Below, in pieces: positions 8,952 through 28,267 of a stretch of DNA of 64,000 nucleotides. Under the pieces are notes generated by a model. That model saw only the letters and a list, made by a program, of their open reading frames with translations. It was not told the DNA's origin and did no database searches. Numbering within the stretch: the stretch's first letter is position 1; each line of letters begins with the position of its first letter. The position numbers and the translations under genes are program-made. The stretch is from Schoenoplectus triqueter (lineage: Eukaryota > Streptophyta > Magnoliopsida > Poales > Cyperaceae). The DNA is taken from positions 124,001 to 188,000 of the forward strand of contig CAXKVV010000152.1 in NCBI GenBank assembly GCA_964058805.1, in the 5' to 3' direction.

Positions 8952-10283
8952 ATGGAAATTTTGAACGAGATACGTGAGGCACAGAGGTCTCAAGGAACAG
9001 CGGCAGTGCTCGCAATTGGCTCGGCGACTCCCTCTAATTTCATATACCAATCCCAATATACCGATTACTTCTTTCGTGTTACGAAGAGCGAGCACCTTAA
9101 AGAACTCAAGCAGGAGTTTCAAAAAATTTGTAAGCTAGAAATCCAACAAATTAACACACACATTCATAATAAATTTTTTACATCACGTACATGCACACAT
9201 TCACACATGCACATAACTAACATTAATTCATCATCCCAATTTATAGGTGATGACACAAAAATCAACAAACGTCACTTTCACCTCACGGAGGAAATGCTCA
9301 AAAAACATCCAAAAATAACTTCAAATAAGGATCAAGAATCACTTGATGCTCGACAAGACATAGTATTAGGTGCGGTGCCCAGGCTCGGCCTCATGGCGGC
9401 AGAGAAGGCTATTAAAGAGTGGGGCCAGCCAAAGTCGAAGATCACCCACCTACTTTTTCACACCACAACAGGTAGTATTGACATGCCTGGTGCTGATCGT
9501 CAGATGGTGAGGCTCCTTGGTCTCTCTCCCTCTACCAAGAGGTCAATGATGTACCACCAGGGCTGCTCAGGTGGTGGCACGGTGCTCCGTCTTGCCAAGG
9601 ATATAGCCGAAAATACTCGAGGCACTCGTGTCCTTGTAATCTGCTCAGAGATTTCTCTGACAACCTTTCGTGGGCCATCTGAGGCGAACAAAGATACTCT
9701 TCTACCTCAAGCAATTTTCGGAGATGGGGCGGCTGCTGTGATTGTGGGAGCCCAGCCGGACCTATCAGTTGAGCGTCCTATTTTTGAAATCATTTCAGCA
9801 TGTCAAACAATCCTTCCTGGCACAGAGGATGCAATGGTGGGACACATCAGACAAGACGGTCTCACATTACACATGTCACCTCTTGCACAAAAACATATCT
9901 CAAATAATATCATAAGTATTCTTTCAGAGATCGTCGAACCACTCAGGATTATTACTGACTGGAATTCAGCCTTTTGGGCCATGAACCCAGGGTGGCCCAC
10001 TATCCTAGAACAATTGCAGTCAGATTTGGTACTTGACGAGGAAAAGCTTAAGGTGACGAGGCATGTGCTTGCCAATTATGGCAACATGATGAGTGCAACC
10101 ATATTTTTCATGCTTGATGAAATGAGGAAGCAGTCGGCCGAAGAGGGAAAGGCATATGATGGACAATACGGTGTCCTTTTAGGATTTGGTGCAGGAATCA
10201 CCATGGAGACTACCATCTTGCGCGCCAATAAGTACAATGCGCGCAATTTCACTGAATCAGAGGATGACGTATGGACAATTTAA
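8952..10283 (+). CDS. Type III polyketide synthase, CHS-like, gene 1
   Basis: Coding exons are 8952-9129 and 9247-10283, giving 404 residues. The 117-nt intron splits a Cys codon (T/GT, Cys60), as in the CHS family. Family members load a starter CoA on the catalytic Cys and extend it with malonyl-CoA in the cytosol. Seen: thiolase-fold motifs IKEWGQPKSKITHL, MPGAD and FGDGAAAVIVG, catalytic Cys166 in HQGCSGGGTV, gatekeeper Phe217 and Asn339 in YGNMMSA. Odd: the catalytic His (CHS His303) is Asn306 (AAC at 9984-9986) within NPGWP instead of HPGGP; CHS Phe265 is Leu267; CHS Ser338 is Met341; one residue is inserted before MPGAD; and an acidic tail (FTESEDDVWTI) extends the C-terminus beyond usual CHS length. 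The intron happens to be open in frame, so retention would add 39 residues. A polyadenylation-like AATAAA lies at 10304. The substrate cannot be predicted; a non-condensing or non-catalytic role is possible. Confidence 0.93.
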   Translation: MEILNEIREAQRSQGTAAVLAIGSATPSNFIYQSQYTDYFFRVTKSEHLKELKQEFQKICKLEIQQINTHIHNKFFTSRTCTHSHMHITNINSSSQFIGDDTKINKRHFHLTEEMLKKHPKITSNKDQESLDARQDIVLGAVPRLGLMAAEKAIKEWGQPKSKITHLLFHTTTGSIDMPGADRQMVRLLGLSPSTKRSMMYHQGCSGGGTVLRLAKDIAENTRGTRVLVICSEISLTTFRGPSEANKDTLLPQAIFGDGAAAVIVGAQPDLSVERPIFEIISACQTILPGTEDAMVGHIRQDGLTLHMSPLAQKHISNNIISILSEIVEPLRIITDWNSAFWAMNPGWPTILEQLQSDLVLDEEKLKVTRHVLANYGNMMSATIFFMLDEMRKQSAEEGKAYDGQYGVLLGFGAGITMETTILRANKYNARNFTESEDDVWTI

Positions 10284-11676: not shown

Positions 11677-11690
11677 TGGTATCAGAGCCA
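11677..11690 (+). other. Primer-binding site (initiator tRNA-Met)
   Basis: TGGTATCAGAGCCA begins 3 nt after the LTR end. It is complementary to the 3' end of plant initiator tRNA-Met, the usual copia primer. Its last base is also the A of the gag ATG at 11690. Confidence 0.93.
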
Positions 11691-14600
11691 TGGCCAATAA
11701 CGGTGCAACCATTGGAGGTGTCGGGCATGTATCATGCTTGCGACTTTCAAAGACCAACTACGAAAATTGGTGCATACACATGAAGGCGCTACTCGGCTCG
11801 CAAGATGTGTGGGAAGTCGTTGAGATTGGCTATACCGAACATGCGACCTTGCAAGGCTTGACGAATAATCAAGTGAAAGAGTTGAAGGAGTCACACAAGA
11901 AAGACAAAACTGCGCTCTACTTGATGTACCAGGCGGTTGATGAGTCAGGCTTTGAGAAGATAGCCGGTGCGAAGACTTCAAAAGAAGCATGGGAGACTCT
12001 TGAAAAGGCATACAAAGGAGCGGACCGAGTGAAGCAAGTTCGCTTACAAGCACTTAGAGGTGAGTTTGAAACTTTAAGAATGAAAGAGTCGGAAGGTGTA
12101 TCGGATTATATCACACGGGTAGAAATGGTGGTGAACCAACTCAAAAGAAATGGTGAAGAGATAAGTGAAAATATAGTAGTAGAAAAAATATTAAGGTCAT
12201 TAACTAATGATTTTGAGAATGTTGTGCGTGTCATAGAAGAGTCTAAGAATTTGGCAGAAATGACGGTGGATGAGCTCTCAACTTCCTTAGAGGCACATGA
12301 ACAAAGAAAAAAAAAGAAGAAGCAAGAGATGTTAGATGAAGCACTTCAAACTAACGTAACACTAAAAGAAGATAAGTTGGGAAACGGTGAAGATGGTCGT
12401 GGAAGAGGCCGTGGTGGCTTTAGAGGTCGAGGTAGAGGCCGCGGTAGAGGCCGTGGTAAAGGACAAGAAGAGAACAAGGAAGAGAAGAACCAATCGATCT
12501 CATACGGCGGAGGCCGAGGTCGAGGAAGAGGAAGATCAAGTAAGTACAATGTTCAATGTTACTCTTGCAAAAAATATGGTCATTATGTAGCGGAGTGTTA
12601 TTACAATGAAAAGAAAGATGATGAGAAAAAAGAAGAGAAAGGATGTGATGGTGTGGTATTACTAGCAAGCAAGGAGGCCGACTCCAACAACGAGTCGGTG
12701 TGGTATTTGGATACCGGTGCAAGCAATCATATGTGTGGCTACAAGCACATGTTTACCAAGATAGAGGATATTGTAGAAGGCCATGTATCATTTGGAGATG
12801 CCTCAAAAGTGAAAGTTAAAGGCCAAAGTGAAATTCTTATTCAGTGTAAAGATGAAAATGAGAGGTTTATCTCTAATGTTTATTATGTGCCGGATATGAA
12901 GAGTAATATTTTGAGTTTGGGACAATTGTTAGAACGTGGTTACACGGTTTTTATGAAAGAAAGAACACTTTATTTGAGAGACCAAGATAATCGGTTGCTA
13001 GCCCAAGTAGAAATGACCAAAAACCGCATGTTTAAGTTGAATTTGGTGAATGTTCAAGCAAGGTGTTTAAAGGTATGTGTAGAAGATATGACTTGGTTGT
13101 GGCATTTACGGTTTGGACATCTTAATTTTGGTGGTTTGAGGCAATTATCAAATAAAAGAATGGTGAAAAATATACCACACATAGACCATAGTGATAAATT
13201 GTGTGAAGGCTGCGTGTTAGGAAAGCACCCAAGGAATTCTTTTCCAAAAGAAGTAAGTTATCGTGCAAAGAAGGTGCTTGAATTGGTTCATACCGATATT
13301 TGTGGCCCAATAACCCCTAATTCACTTGGTAAACACCGGTACTTTATTACCTTTATTAATGATTTTTCTCGAAGAACTTGGGTATATTTTTTAAAGGAGA
13401 AATCTGAAGCTTTGTTTATTTTTAAGAAGTTTAAGGTGCTTGTTGAAAACTTAAGTGGTGAATGCATAAAAACTTTGAGATCCGATAGAGGCGGTGAATT
13501 TACATCAAAGGAGTTTGTGAATTTTTGTGAACAAAAAGGTATTAGAAGGTTCTTAACAGCCCCTTATTCACCTCAACAAAATGGAGTGACGGAATGAAAA
13601 AATCGGACCATACTCGACATGGTTCGAAGCATGTTAAAGAGCAAAAATATGCCGAAGGAATTTTGGGCTGAAGCGGTGAGGTGTGCAGTTTACTTGCAAA
13701 ATTGATGTCCTACGGCGAGTTTAGAGAATATTACCCCATAAGAAGCATGGTGCGGTGTGAAACCATCAGTAGCTCATTTGAAGGTGTTCGGAAGTGTGGC
13801 TTATGCTCATGTTCCAGATCAAAAGCGCACAAAACTTGATGACAAGAGCAAGAAGCTAATTTTTATTGGCTATGATGAGAAATCTAAGGCGTACAATATT
13901 TATGATCCGCTTACTAAAAAGGTACATGTGAGTTGTGATATGCAGGTCAATAAAGAAAGCATGTGGAATTTGAGTTCCATGGAGGAGATGTCTCATGAAG
14001 AAGGAAAAGAAGCGACATCAACAATTATCTCTACACCGACAAGCACAACTACATCGATAATATCACAAGCCGAACCATCTTCACCTTTATCCGATGATGA
14101 AGATGAGCCAAGGACACCAAAGACAAGGAATTTGCGAGAAATATACGAGGCGACAAGTGAATTACATTTGGTGTGTCTTTTGGCGGATGCGGAGGACATC
14201 ACATTTGAGCAAGCCGTAAAAGATAAAAAGTGGCAAGCCGCTATGCAAGAGGAGATGAAAGCAATTGAGAAAAATGACACTTCGGAACTTGTGACGTTGC
14301 CCAAGGGTCACAAGTCGATTGGTGTTAAATGGGTTTATAAGAAAAAGATGAATGTGCAAGGCGAGGTTGAAAGATACAAAGCAAGATTAGTGGCGAAAGG
14401 GTACAAGCAAAAGACGGGGATTGATTATGAAGATAATCCGACTACTAATCTCGTTGGTAGCTCAAAATAAATGGAGCATTTTTCAAATGGACGTGAAATC
14501 GGCGTTTCTAAATGGAGTGCTTGAAGAAGAAGTCTATATCGAGCAACCTTCCGGTTATGTGAAAGTTGACAAAGAGCACATGATGTTGAAGTTAAAAAAG

Positions 14601-15692
14601 GTGTTGTATGGGTTGAAGCAAGCGCCAAGGGCATGGAACACTCGAATTGATGCATACTTCAAGGAGCATGGGTTTGTGCAATGCCCATATGAGCACGCGC
14701 TATATTTGAAGGTACAAAAAGATGATATTTTATTTGTGGCCTTGTATGTAGATAATTTGATTTTTACGGGAAATAATAGAGATATGATTGAGAAGTTTAA
14801 GTTGGAAATGACAAAAGAATTTGAGATGACCGATTTTGGCCTCATGTCTTATTTTTTGGGGTTAGAAGTGAGACAAGAAAATTCTGAAATTTTTGTTTCA
14901 CAAAAAGCATATGCAAAGGAGATTTTAAAGAAGTTTAAGATAGATGAATGTAATCCCGTAAATACTCCGGTTGAGAGTGGGATGAAATTGTCTCGATATG
15001 ATGAAGGAAAGACGGTTGACGCAACACTATATAGAAGCTTGGTTGGAAGCTTGCGTTATTTGACGTGCACAAGGCCGGATATTGCTTATGAAGTTGGCTT
15101 GGTGAGCCGATATATTGAGCCGAAAATGACGCATTGGAAAGCCATAAAGCGAATTATTCGCTATGTCAAAGGTACATTATCTCATGGCTTATTTTATTCT
15201 CATACTAATGAGTTTGATCTTGTTGGATATTCTGATAGTGATTGGAGTGGAGATTTAGATGATCGGAAGAGCACTTCGGGTTTTGTGTTTTTCATGGGAA
15301 GCACGGCATTTACATGGCTCTCTAAGAAGCAACCTATTGTTACTTTGTCCACATGTGAAGTGAAGTATGTTGCTGCATCTTCTTGCGTATGTCACTCTCT
15401 TTGGCTACGCAAGTTACTAAAGGAGATGAACTTTTCTCAAGAGAAGGCGATGAATATTCGAGTGGATAACAAGTCGACAATTGAGTTGGCGAAAAATCTG
15501 ATGCATCATGAAAGGAGCAAGCACATAGATGTGCGTTTTCACTTCATACGAGAACATGTGAAGAATGGCGATGTAGAGATGACTCATGTGACGAGTCGTG
15601 ATCAAGTGGCGGACATATTCACCAAACCACTACCGGCAGAACTTTTCAACAAGTTCAAGAAGTTGCTCGGGATGCAAGTCAGAAATAATTAA
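11690..15692 (+). pseudogene. Copia gag-pol polyprotein, broken
   Basis: Frame 11690-13597 holds gag, an Arg-Gly-rich segment (about 12400-12540), the zinc knuckle CYSCKKYGHYVAEC (about 12556-12597), the protease motif DTGASNHM (about 12709), the HLRFGHLN integrase zinc-binding start (about 13102) and part of the integrase core. A TGA follows ...QQNGVTE at 13595-13597; more stops fall at about 13703 and 13739. Frame 13757-14470 continues the integrase C-terminal part and RT start. A frame change with local loss near 14435-14470 moves to 14421-15692, covering RT (QMDVKSAFLNG, about 14487), RNase H (DRKSTSGFVFF, about 15261) and the end TKPL (about 15623). The RT catalytic motif reads YVDN rather than YVDD (14745-14756). 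The element cannot make a functional polyprotein by itself. Confidence 0.95.
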
Positions 15693-21383: not shown

Positions 21384-22574
21384 ATGGACATGGGGCTAAA
21401 TCAAGAGACCCAAGGGGAAATACAAAGGATACAAACTGATGCAAACAATGACCCTACAGATGGTGTTAATGCACCAGAATCAGAAAGACCCTAAAAAAAG
21501 AGGAAAACTAGGACAACACTAACCTCTGATGTATGGAAACATTTCAAAAAGGGGCATGATCAGAAAGATGGCAGCTATGATGCTATATGCAACTATTGTG
21601 GGCAAGTCTTTAAGATAGGTTGTCAAAGGAGCACCAGCTCCTTGAGGCACCACATAACTAAAAGTTGCAAGAAAATTCCTCACAACATCAGGCACAAACC
21701 TAATGCCATGCAAAAATGGTTGCAGGCTAGCAATACAACAACAGGTACAATCCTAATTCTAAACAGGTACCAACTATATTTCTTAGTTGCATGTTCTAAC
21801 TTAAATTATTTCATGTTAGGAGGGCAATCTCCTACTAATTGGGTGTTTAATCAAATGAGGTGTAGAAAAGGCCTTGCAAGAATGGTGATTGCACACGAAT
21901 ACCCATTCAACTGTGCTAATCACCACTTCTTGAAAGTGTTCTTAAGTGATTTACAGCACTTTTTTAAAATGCCCTCAAGAAATAATATTAGAGCTGATTG
22001 CATTGGTATTTATGAAGAGGAAAAAGATCTTTTGTATAAGTTGTTTAGCAAGTTAGAATGTAAATTCAGTTTTACTAGTGACTTGTGGACAAGTAAGGGC
22101 AAAGATAGGGGTTTCATGGCCCTTACAGTTCATTACATAGATGACGATTGGCATTTAAGAAAGAGAACAATCACATTTGCCCCATTGCCCAGTCCCCAAA
22201 CTACTAGCCCAACACCTAGGGTTAGTGATACAAGGGCTGGGTTGAAGGATCACTTGAGGGGTAAAAAGACCTCTGAACCAATAAAGTCAGAACTTGAGGA
22301 TTATTTGACTGATGGACTTGATGAAGCCAGTCTAGATGATGAATTCGATATCTTGACATGGTGGAAACTAAAGGCTCCTAAGTACCCGGTACTTTCTCGG
22401 TTAACCCGGGACATACTTGTTGTCCCAATCTCCACAGTTGCTTCTGAATCTACCTTCAGTACTAGTGGTAGAACTTTGAACCCAGTAAGAAACTCTTTGA
22501 ATGATGAAAGTATTGAAGCACTTATATGTGCTCAGGATTGGTTGAGAGCTTCAATTATCGGTACACTAACTTGA
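21384..22574 (+). pseudogene. hAT transposase, truncated core
   Basis: A start at 21384 (MDMGLN) gives a frame with a TAA at 21492-21494. It then continues as KKRKTRTTLTSDVWKHF and a BED-type zinc finger (CNYC ... HH ... C, about 21588-21670). A second part includes the SDLWTS motif, which carries the first catalytic Asp (about 22080), and HYIDDDW. The next segment jumps to acidic sequence and the hAT C-terminal dimerisation domain (LTWWKLKAPKYPVLSRLTRD and VPISTVASESTFS, about 22350-22560). The catalytic middle with the remaining acidic residues is missing, so this is shorter than the usual 650-800 residue transposase. It is not functional as read, although the DNA-binding and dimerisation parts remain. 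Confidence 0.9.
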
Positions 22575-26928: not shown

Positions 26929-28267
26929 TTAAATTGTCCAGACATCATCCTCTGATTCAGTGAAATTGTGCGCATTATATTTATTGGCACGTAAGATGGT
27001 AGTCTCCATGGTGATTCCAGCTCCAAATCCTAAAATGACACCATACTCTTCATCCAATGCATTTCCTTCTCCAGCCAACTGCTTCCTCATTTCATCAAGC
27101 ATGAAAAATATGGTTGCACTCATCATGTTGCCATAATCGGCAAGCACATGCCTCGTCACCTTCAGCTTTTCCTCATCAAGTGCCAGATCTGACCGCACTT
27201 GTTCGAGGATAGTGGGCCACCCTGGGTTCACGACCCAAAAGGCTGAATTCCAGTCAGTAATAATCTTGAGTGGATCGACAATCTCTGAAAGAGTACTAAT
27301 GATGTTATTCGAGATATGTTTTGGTGCAGGAGGTGACATGTGCAATGTGAGACCGTCTTGTCTGATATGTCCCACCATTGCATCGTCTGTGCCAGGAAGG
27401 ATGGTTTGATATGCTGAAATGATTTCAAAAATAGGACGCTCAACTGACAAGTCCGGCTGGGCTCCCACAATCACAGCAGCCGCCCCATCTCCGAAAATTG
27501 CTTGAGGTAGGAGAGTATCTTTATTCGCCTCAGATGGCCCACGGAAGGTTGTCAGAGAAATCTCTGAGCATATTACAAGGACACGAGTACCTTGAGTATT
27601 CTCAGCTATATCCTTGGCAAGACGCAGCACCATGCCACCACCCGAGCAACCCTGGTGGTACATCATTGATCTTTTGGTAGAGGGAGAGAGACCAAGGAGC
27701 CTCACCATCTGACGATCCGCGCCAGGCATGTCAATACTACCTGTTGTGGTGTGAAAAAGTAGGTGGGTGATCTTCGACTTTGGCTGGCCCCATTCTTTAA
27801 TGGCCTTCTCTGCTGCCATGAGGCCGAGTCTCGGCACTGCACCTAACACTATGTCTTGTCGAGCATCAAGTGATTCTTGATCTTTATTTGAAGTTATTTT
27901 TGGGTGTTTTTTGAGCATTTCCTCTGTGAGGTGAAAATGACGTTTGTGGATTTTTGTGTCATCACCTACAAATAAGGATGAAGAATTAATGTTACTTATG
28001 TGCATGTGCGAATGTGTGAATGTGTGATGTACGTGATGTAAGAAATCTACTGTTAAAGTGTGTGTTAATTTGTTGGACTTCTGGCTTACAGATTTTCTGA
28101 AACTCCTGCTTGAGTTCTTTAAGGTGCTCATTCTTCGTAACACGAAAGAAGTAATCGGCATATTGGGATTGGTATATGAAATTAGAGGGAGTAGCCGAGC
28201 CGATTGCGAGCACTGTCGCCGTTCCTTGAGACCTCTGTGCCTCACGTATCTCATTCAAAATTTCCAT
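26929..28267 (-). CDS. Type III polyketide synthase, CHS-like, gene 2
   Basis: Coding exons are 28267-28090 and 27965-26929 on the minus strand, giving 404 residues. The 124-nt intron again splits the Cys60 codon. About 27 residues differ from gene 1 by eye, roughly 93 per cent identity. Every unusual site is shared: catalytic Cys166 (HQGCSGGGMV), Asn306 in place of His (AAC at 27228-27226; VVNPGWP), Asn339, Met341, Leu267 and the acidic C-terminal tail. The frame has no stops or indels, so both copies have stayed open since duplication, which argues that the His-to-Asn change arose before it. It faces gene 1 tail to tail, about 16.6 kb apart, with transposons between. Divergence is concentrated near the C-terminus (residues about 350-370). 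The product is not predictable from sequence. Confidence 0.93.

What the first reader, a model, noticed from the sequence alone, without database searches (positions are those of the whole stretch)
9984..9986. Type III PKS with catalytic His replaced by Asn (Cys-Asn-Asn site), gene 1
Seen: codon AAC where CHS has His303, within NPGWP instead of HPGGP; Cys166 and Asn339 are kept. Established: the Cys-His-Asn triad is shared by type III PKS, where His helps ionise Cys and decarboxylate malonyl-CoA, and the HPGG loop is near-invariant. Inference: ordinary condensation should be impaired, so the protein may be a non-condensing acyltransferase, a regulator, or an enzyme using a rearranged site. The Trp after NPG would also crowd the active-site wall. 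Leu267 and Met341 (CHS Phe265, Ser338) reshape the cavity further.
Basis: partly seen in the sequence, partly recalled or inferred. Interest (0 to 1): 0.8.

Follow-up and report, generated by a model that had tools for sequence, protein, structure and literature searches.

The report
Histidine-less chalcone synthase-like family, sedges
This plant genome, likely a sedge, carries eight intact chalcone-synthase-like genes in which the catalytic histidine is replaced by asparagine and the charges that hold coenzyme A in normal enzymes are changed, yet selection keeps the proteins conserved, so they likely do some new job other than building polyketides.

Summary
Gene 1 (exons 8952-9129 and 9247-10283) encodes a 404-aa type III PKS-like protein with Asn (AAC, 9984-9986) at the CHS His303 position; Cys164 and Asn336 are kept. 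It is not a one-off: the genome holds eight intact NPGWP genes, one broken copy and three ordinary His303 genes. Five further protein clusters (one from Rhynchospora pubera, four from JGI contigs) share Asn303. Of 228 aligned sequences, all 13 of this group have Asn and the other 215 have His (a sample biased to close hits). Selection is purifying (omega about 0.19), so this is not decay. New here: the CoA-tunnel residues Lys55/Arg58/Lys62 (+3) are changed (net -1, -2 or 0), Pro375 is Ala, Ser338 is Met, the loop before the dimer-contact residue Met137 is one residue longer, and all members end in D-(V/A)-W-(T/I)-(I/L). A review reports that engineered alfalfa CHS H303N loses malonyl-CoA decarboxylation. 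Best reading: a sedge-lineage, non-condensing CHS paralogue, likely a pseudoenzyme partner protein. Function is untested; a CoA-independent acyl enzyme or a re-sited active site remain open.

The parts
8952..9129 (+). Gene 1, exon 1 (Met1 to the first base of the Cys60 codon); carries Glu55 (9114-9116) and Lys58 (9123-9125), which are CHS Lys55 and Arg58
9130..9246 (+). Gene 1 intron, GT-AG, inside the Cys60 codon
   Evidence: relatives P0004 and P0005 are contiguous across this point
9247..10283 (+). Gene 1, exon 2 to the stop codon; carries Asp62 (9252), His131 (9459), inserted Ser136 (9474), His163 (9555), Met341 (10089), Ala375 (10191)
9564..9566 (+). Cys166 codon TGC (CHS Cys164), kept
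9984..9986 (+). Asn306 codon AAC (CHS His303), the reported change
9993..9995 (+). Trp309 codon TGG (CHS Gly306); Trp, Phe or Met across the clade
10083..10085 (+). Asn339 codon AAC (CHS Asn336), kept
10263..10280 (+). C-terminal DDVWTI, clade-wide tail motif
28090..28267 (-). Gene 2, exon 1
26929..27965 (-). Gene 2, exon 2 to the stop codon; Asn306 codon AAC at 27228-27226

Best explanation
Gene 1 belongs to a clade of chalcone-synthase-like genes with Asn in place of the catalytic His and changed CoA-tunnel charges, whose proteins would be unable to decarboxylate malonyl-CoA and are predicted to act as non-condensing partner proteins (pseudoenzymes) rather than as polyketide synthases. Shown by sequence: His303 to Asn fixed across the clade, changed CoA-tunnel residues, a remodelled pocket, mostly retained dimer-contact residues, a new C-terminal motif common to all members, and purifying selection on eight intact copies. 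From the literature: H303N abolishes malonyl-CoA decarboxylation in alfalfa CHS, and Lys55/Arg58/Lys62 line the CoA-binding tunnel. Inferred and untested: the protein still dimerises, possibly with ordinary CHS of the same plant; the conserved tail is a docking peptide; a small ligand may still sit in the remodelled pocket.
For: Asn303 in 13 of 13 clade rows, His in 215 of 215 other rows. H303N abolishes decarboxylation in alfalfa CHS (PMC6274091 section 26). Net charge at 55/58/62 is -1, -2 or 0 in the 11 clade rows that cover 55 and 58, against +3 in P0018 and C1201_A. Functional positions are changed more often than other invariant columns (9 of 15 against 40 of 215, p = 0.0008). Tail motif in 13 of 13 and 0 of 215, with pLDDT under 50 in the model of P0004. 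Interface residues 136 and 259 kept in 13 of 13, 96 and 257 in 12 of 13. Omega 0.19.
Against: Cys164, Asn336, Thr132, Glu192 and Gly256 are kept in 13 of 13 and Phe215 in 12 of 13, which also fits a working active site, although 117 of 183 CHS-invariant columns are kept anyway. Single CoA-tunnel positives survive in places: Lys58 in the 8 own genes, Arg58 in P0006, Lys62 in P0004. Residue 281, a salt-bridge residue in a relative, is changed in 13 of 13. Copy-number expansion to eight intact genes is more usual for enzymes than for regulators (inference). No partner or binding was shown.
Confidence: 0.45

Rival explanations
1. A non-condensing Cys enzyme: acyl transfer or hydrolysis through Cys166, with Asn306 and Asn339 as oxyanion hole and a donor other than free CoA esters.
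For: Cys164 and Asn336 are in 13 of 13 clade rows while neighbours at 163 and 305 vary; the pocket residues 133, 194, 338 and 375 are changed to one fixed new residue each; eight intact copies under constraint.
Against: Retention of Cys and Asn is near the background rate (117 of 183 invariant columns kept). The change of the CoA tunnel removes the usual donor, and no other donor is known here. No base near Cys was identified.
Confidence: 0.25
2. A working polyketide synthase with a rearranged site: His131 or His163 (CHS 130, 161) takes over the role of His303, perhaps with another extender.
For: His at 130 and 161 is in 13 of 13 clade rows; the nine clade rows in the tree arose on one long stem followed by short branches, as after a change of function.
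Against: His161 also occurs in 2 of the 215 other rows, and Arachis proteins listed with it keep His303. H303N alone abolished decarboxylation in alfalfa CHS. CoA-tunnel charges are changed. Distances could not be tested.
Confidence: 0.2
3. Decaying duplicates of CHS on the way to pseudogenes.
For: One of nine copies (C271:149k) has a frameshift and a stop. A rice survey calls OsCHS genes that lack triad residues non-functional (PMC7312121, passages). The clade stem is long (0.95).
Against: Eight of nine copies are intact, omega is about 0.19, Asn and the tail motif are invariant across relatives 76-90% identical to gene 1, and full-length intron-free relatives sit on 1.4-1.6 kb contigs.
Confidence: 0.03

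Closest known systems
Chalcone synthase (plant type III PKS), e.g. rice 4yjy, alfalfa 1bi5
   Same: Whole-length homology, 59-60% identity to many plant CHS, CHS intron position, Cys164 and Asn336, predicted fold of a clade member
   Different: His303 to Asn, changed CoA tunnel, Ser338 to Met, Pro375 to Ala, loop insertion, acidic Trp-containing tail
Engineered alfalfa CHS H303N / H303Q (review PMC6274091; H303Q structure 1d6i)
   Same: The same residue change as H303N, reported to abolish malonyl-CoA decarboxylation
   Different: Laboratory mutants of an otherwise normal enzyme with intact CoA tunnel; here the change is natural, fixed in a clade and joined by many others
Rice OsCHS19, 26, 27 and 31 (PMC7312121)
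   Same: Natural CHS-family genes lacking triad residues
   Different: Lack more than one triad residue and many others, judged non-functional by their authors; the present genes are full length and under purifying selection
CHIL, chalcone isomerase-like protein that binds CHS (complex 9wbe listed; its role recalled)
   Same: What the favoured reading works like: a non-catalytic relative of a flavonoid enzyme that would act through binding
   Different: Unrelated fold, not a homologue; no binding shown here

Membership tests
Type III polyketide synthase superfamily (by descent) | Chal_sti_synt_N and Chal_sti_synt_C domains above the curated cut-off | tested here: met
   324 and 147.6 bits, cut-off 27
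Type III polyketide synthase superfamily (by descent) | CHS fold | tested here: met
   Model of clade member P0004 (pLDDT 77.3, pTM 0.84) matches CHS structures at TM about 0.87-0.91; gene 1 itself was not modelled
Type III polyketide synthase (as enzyme) | Cys-His-Asn triad | tested here: not met
   Cys-Asn-Asn in gene 1 and 13 of 13 clade rows
Type III polyketide synthase (as enzyme) | Positive CoA-tunnel residues 55, 58, 62 | tested here: not met
   Glu-Lys-Asp in gene 1, net -1; positions from PMC11093982
Type III polyketide synthase (as enzyme) | Decarboxylative condensation of malonyl-CoA | not testable with these tools
   needs recombinant protein
Chalcone synthase proper | Phe265, Ser338 and Pro375 with GFGPG | tested here: not met
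   Leu, Met and Ala with GFGAG in gene 1
Pseudoenzyme partner of CHS | Binding to CHS or another partner without own catalysis | not testable with these tools
   inferred from lost catalytic features and the conserved tail; no binding data
Pseudogene | Broken frame or neutral evolution | tested here: not met
   8 of 9 copies intact, omega 0.19

The most novel reading that the evidence does not exclude
A sedge-lineage pseudo-polyketide-synthase that pairs with the plant's ordinary CHS: its lengthened Met137 loop reaches across the dimer into the partner's cavity and changes what CHS makes, while its conserved D-x-W tail docks the pair onto another protein.
Probability: 0.15. Interest if true: 0.85.

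Novelty: new variant of a known kind. Interest (0 to 1): 0.6.

Why it matters
The Cys-His-Asn triad is treated as the fixed part of type III PKS while the pocket varies; a survey of 190 sequences from 20 species calls it extremely conserved in all of them (PMC5004622, passages seen). A clade that has fixed the very substitution reported to kill decarboxylation, changed the CoA tunnel and still stays under purifying selection is a natural case of a condensing enzyme that has likely left condensation. It makes directly testable what this scaffold can do without that chemistry. It also warns that database names call such genes chalcone synthase (P0006) when that activity is unlikely.

Tried and rejected
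Pseudogene reading: rejected by intact frames and selection. Biosynthetic gene cluster: of 20 ORFs chosen by length on C149 and scanned against Pfam in two answered calls, 10 matched a family: nine of transposon or plant-mobile-domain type (copia, hAT, tnp2 and others; one of them below its cut-off) and one DUF604 gene at C149:198901-199512; 10 gave nothing and no tailoring enzyme was seen. Spliced neighbours could be missed. Other natural His303 variants close to CHS: a canonical CHS changed to Asn at 303, scored on residues 284-330, gave 391 matches, 120 listed, all of those with His; this sees only near-canonical, listed rows. More clade members: a profile search gave 1843 matches, 120 listed, no further Asn row among them. 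Placing His131 and His163 relative to Cys166: not possible, no coordinates were returned. Species: no call names it; the two C1201 CHS genes group with a Rhynchospora pubera CHS in the tree (97/89), while their best pairwise identities (93-94%) are to Juncus, Eleocharis, Carex and Rhynchospora, so 'sedge' is an inference. Retention of Cys164 as proof of catalysis: rejected as weak (117 of 183 invariant columns kept). Literature: searches and 62 of the held open-access library; in their listings and in the passages I read I saw no report of a conserved natural His303 to Asn type III PKS. The rice paper does report natural triad-deficient copies, judged non-functional. Cys pKa data for His303 mutants are recalled only and not used.

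Full report
What is there. Gene 1 lies on the + strand at 8952-10283 with one GT-AG intron (9130-9246) that splits the Cys60 codon, and encodes 404 aa. Its Pfam hits include Chal_sti_synt_N (324 bits) and Chal_sti_synt_C (147.6 bits). The codon 9984-9986 is AAC, giving NPGWP where CHS has HPGGP; the Cys and the second Asn of the triad are kept. The window is bases 124001-188000 of contig C149 of an 82-Mb assembly in 2086 contigs.

It is a family. Six NPGWP genes sit on C149 as three inverted pairs within duplicated blocks of several tens of kb whose aligned pieces are about 94-99% identical. The window holds one pair: gene 1 and gene 2 (28267-26929, minus strand, Asn codon 27228-27226). One more intact copy is on C199 and one on C271; a second C271 copy has a frameshift and a stop codon. 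That makes eight intact of nine. The same genome has two HPGGP chalcone synthase genes on C1201 and a divergent HPGGP gene on C1950. C614 holds only an exon-1 fragment.

Relatives elsewhere. A search of about 5.8 billion proteins gave 1714 matches, 120 listed. Five listed clusters form a group at 76-90% identity to gene 1: P0006 from Rhynchospora pubera (24 member sequences) and P0003, P0004, P0005, P0008 from JGI contigs; every other listed hit is at 60% or below. All five carry Asn: NPGWP, NPGFP, NPCMP, NPCFP, NPAFP. A profile search from the group listed no further Asn member. P0004 and P0005 are full-length and intron-free on contigs of 1412 and 1600 bases, which fits transcripts but does not prove expression; P0003 starts inside the intron, so it looks genomic. 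In the tree, the nine Asn rows that I included (of 13) form one group (100/100) on a stem of 0.95 substitutions per column with short branches inside; a long-branched Lotus protein sits next to them with weak support (95/76), which I take as unsure.

Census. I aligned the 217 proteins listed over the three searches with 11 gene models of this genome, the broken copy left out: 13 rows have Asn at position 303 and 215 have His. These are top hits of queries close to CHS, so it is not a survey of all type III PKS. One query was a canonical CHS changed to Asn at 303, meant to favour natural Asn variants; all 120 rows it listed, of 391 matches, have His. A published survey calls Cys164, His303 and Asn336 extremely conserved in all members (PMC5004622, passages seen); a maize paper finds the triad and Pro375 in all its genes (PMC4783895, passages seen). 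A rice paper reports four genes that lack triad residues and judges them non-functional (PMC7312121, passages seen).

More than one residue. In CHS numbering the clade also has: Lys55 to Glu or Asn, Arg58 to Lys, Glu or Thr (Arg kept in one), Lys62 to Asp or Glu (Lys kept in one), Cys130 to His, Ser133 to Thr, Gln161 to His, Phe165 to Ser, Ala166 to Gly, Thr194 to Ser, Gly211 to Pro, Phe265 to Leu or Val, Gly306 to Trp, Phe or Met, Ser338 to Met, Pro375 to Ala, and one extra residue between 134 and 135. Some of these occur singly among the 215 others: His161 in 2, Met338 in 1, Ala375 in 2. Residues 55, 58 and 62 line the CoA tunnel; the 18 functional positions I tested are those named in a figure legend of PMC11093982 (passages seen). 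Of CHS columns at least 95% invariant, 9 of 15 functional positions are changed in the clade against 40 of 215 others (p = 0.0008); at 90% it is 10 of 18 against 57 of 257 (p = 0.003), at 97% 6 of 12 against 26 of 171 (p = 0.008). The clade is one lineage, so columns are not fully independent, but change is concentrated on the active site and CoA entrance.

What is kept. Cys164, Asn336, Thr132, Met137, Glu192 and Gly256 are in 13 of 13 clade rows, Phe215 in 12 of 13. This is weak evidence for catalysis, since 117 of 183 CHS-invariant columns are kept anyway. Of salt-bridge residues named for a relative (PMC11093982), 136 and 259 are kept in 13 of 13 and 96 and 257 in 12 of 13, while 281 is changed in 13 of 13. 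Every clade protein ends in D-(V/A)-W-(T/I)-(I/L), in 13 of 13 and in 0 of 215 others (the pattern was written after seeing the tails). In the model of P0004 (mean pLDDT 77.3, pTM 0.84; the other four models 57-67) the last 13 residues and 199-216 are below 50. The model's best matches are CHS structures, TM about 0.87-0.91.

Selection. Between own copies with dS above 0.1, dN/dS is 0.11-0.18. The C149:37k copy against its two close relatives gives 0.22 and 0.23 (dS 0.05-0.06). Pairs that differ by one to three changes give 0.14, 0.29, 0.58 and one undefined value, which say little. A one-omega codon model over the eight intact genes gives 0.19 with kappa 3.66. In a grid with kappa fixed at 2, the log-likelihood is -2607.9 at omega 0.15 and -2675.1 at omega 1. 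The genes are held by purifying selection.

How it likely works. A review states that in alfalfa CHS the mutants H303A, H303D, H303N and H303T abolished malonyl-CoA decarboxylation while H303Q did not, and that His303 mutants bound CoA and acetyl-CoA about as well as wild type (PMC6274091, section 26 read). If the same holds here (inference), these proteins would not extend polyketides. The changed CoA-tunnel charges make free CoA esters unlikely substrates (inference). A likely dead condensation site, mostly kept dimer contacts, a new invariant tail and constraint together point to a non-condensing partner protein, for which I give 0.45. A Cys-based acyl enzyme with another donor (0.25) and a PKS with a re-sited base (0.2) remain possible. 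The loop before Met137 is one residue longer here; [quoted passage not shown] This is untested.

Limits.

Noticed in passing
C149:36000-72000, 87000-131000, 132000-169000 (the window starts at C149:124001): Three large duplicated blocks, pieces about 94-99% identical, each with an inverted pair of NPGWP genes.
   Followed up: partly
L023 (C271:147500-151500): A ninth NPGWP copy, broken by a frameshift in exon 1 and a TAG in exon 2.
   Followed up: no
window 11690-15692 and 21642-22574: A copia-type retrotransposon and a hAT-family transposase remnant between genes 1 and 2.
   Followed up: no
L045; C149:232900-249910: The end of the contig is a satellite of about 183 bp units in a 3.5-kb higher-order repeat.
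   Followed up: no
L017 (C1201:1-9000): Two ordinary HPGGP chalcone synthase genes modelled with a second intron that the NPGWP genes lack; 78 codon but only 6 amino-acid differences between them.
   Followed up: partly
L025 (C1950:3000-7500): A divergent type III PKS gene with HPGGP but YYQGCHGG around the Cys, 47% identical to gene 1 over the exon-2 match and up to 57% to the listed CHS proteins.
   Followed up: no
P0001, P0002, P0007: Database entries of 679-698 aa, listed high in the search, that look like two type III PKS units in one predicted protein.
   Followed up: no
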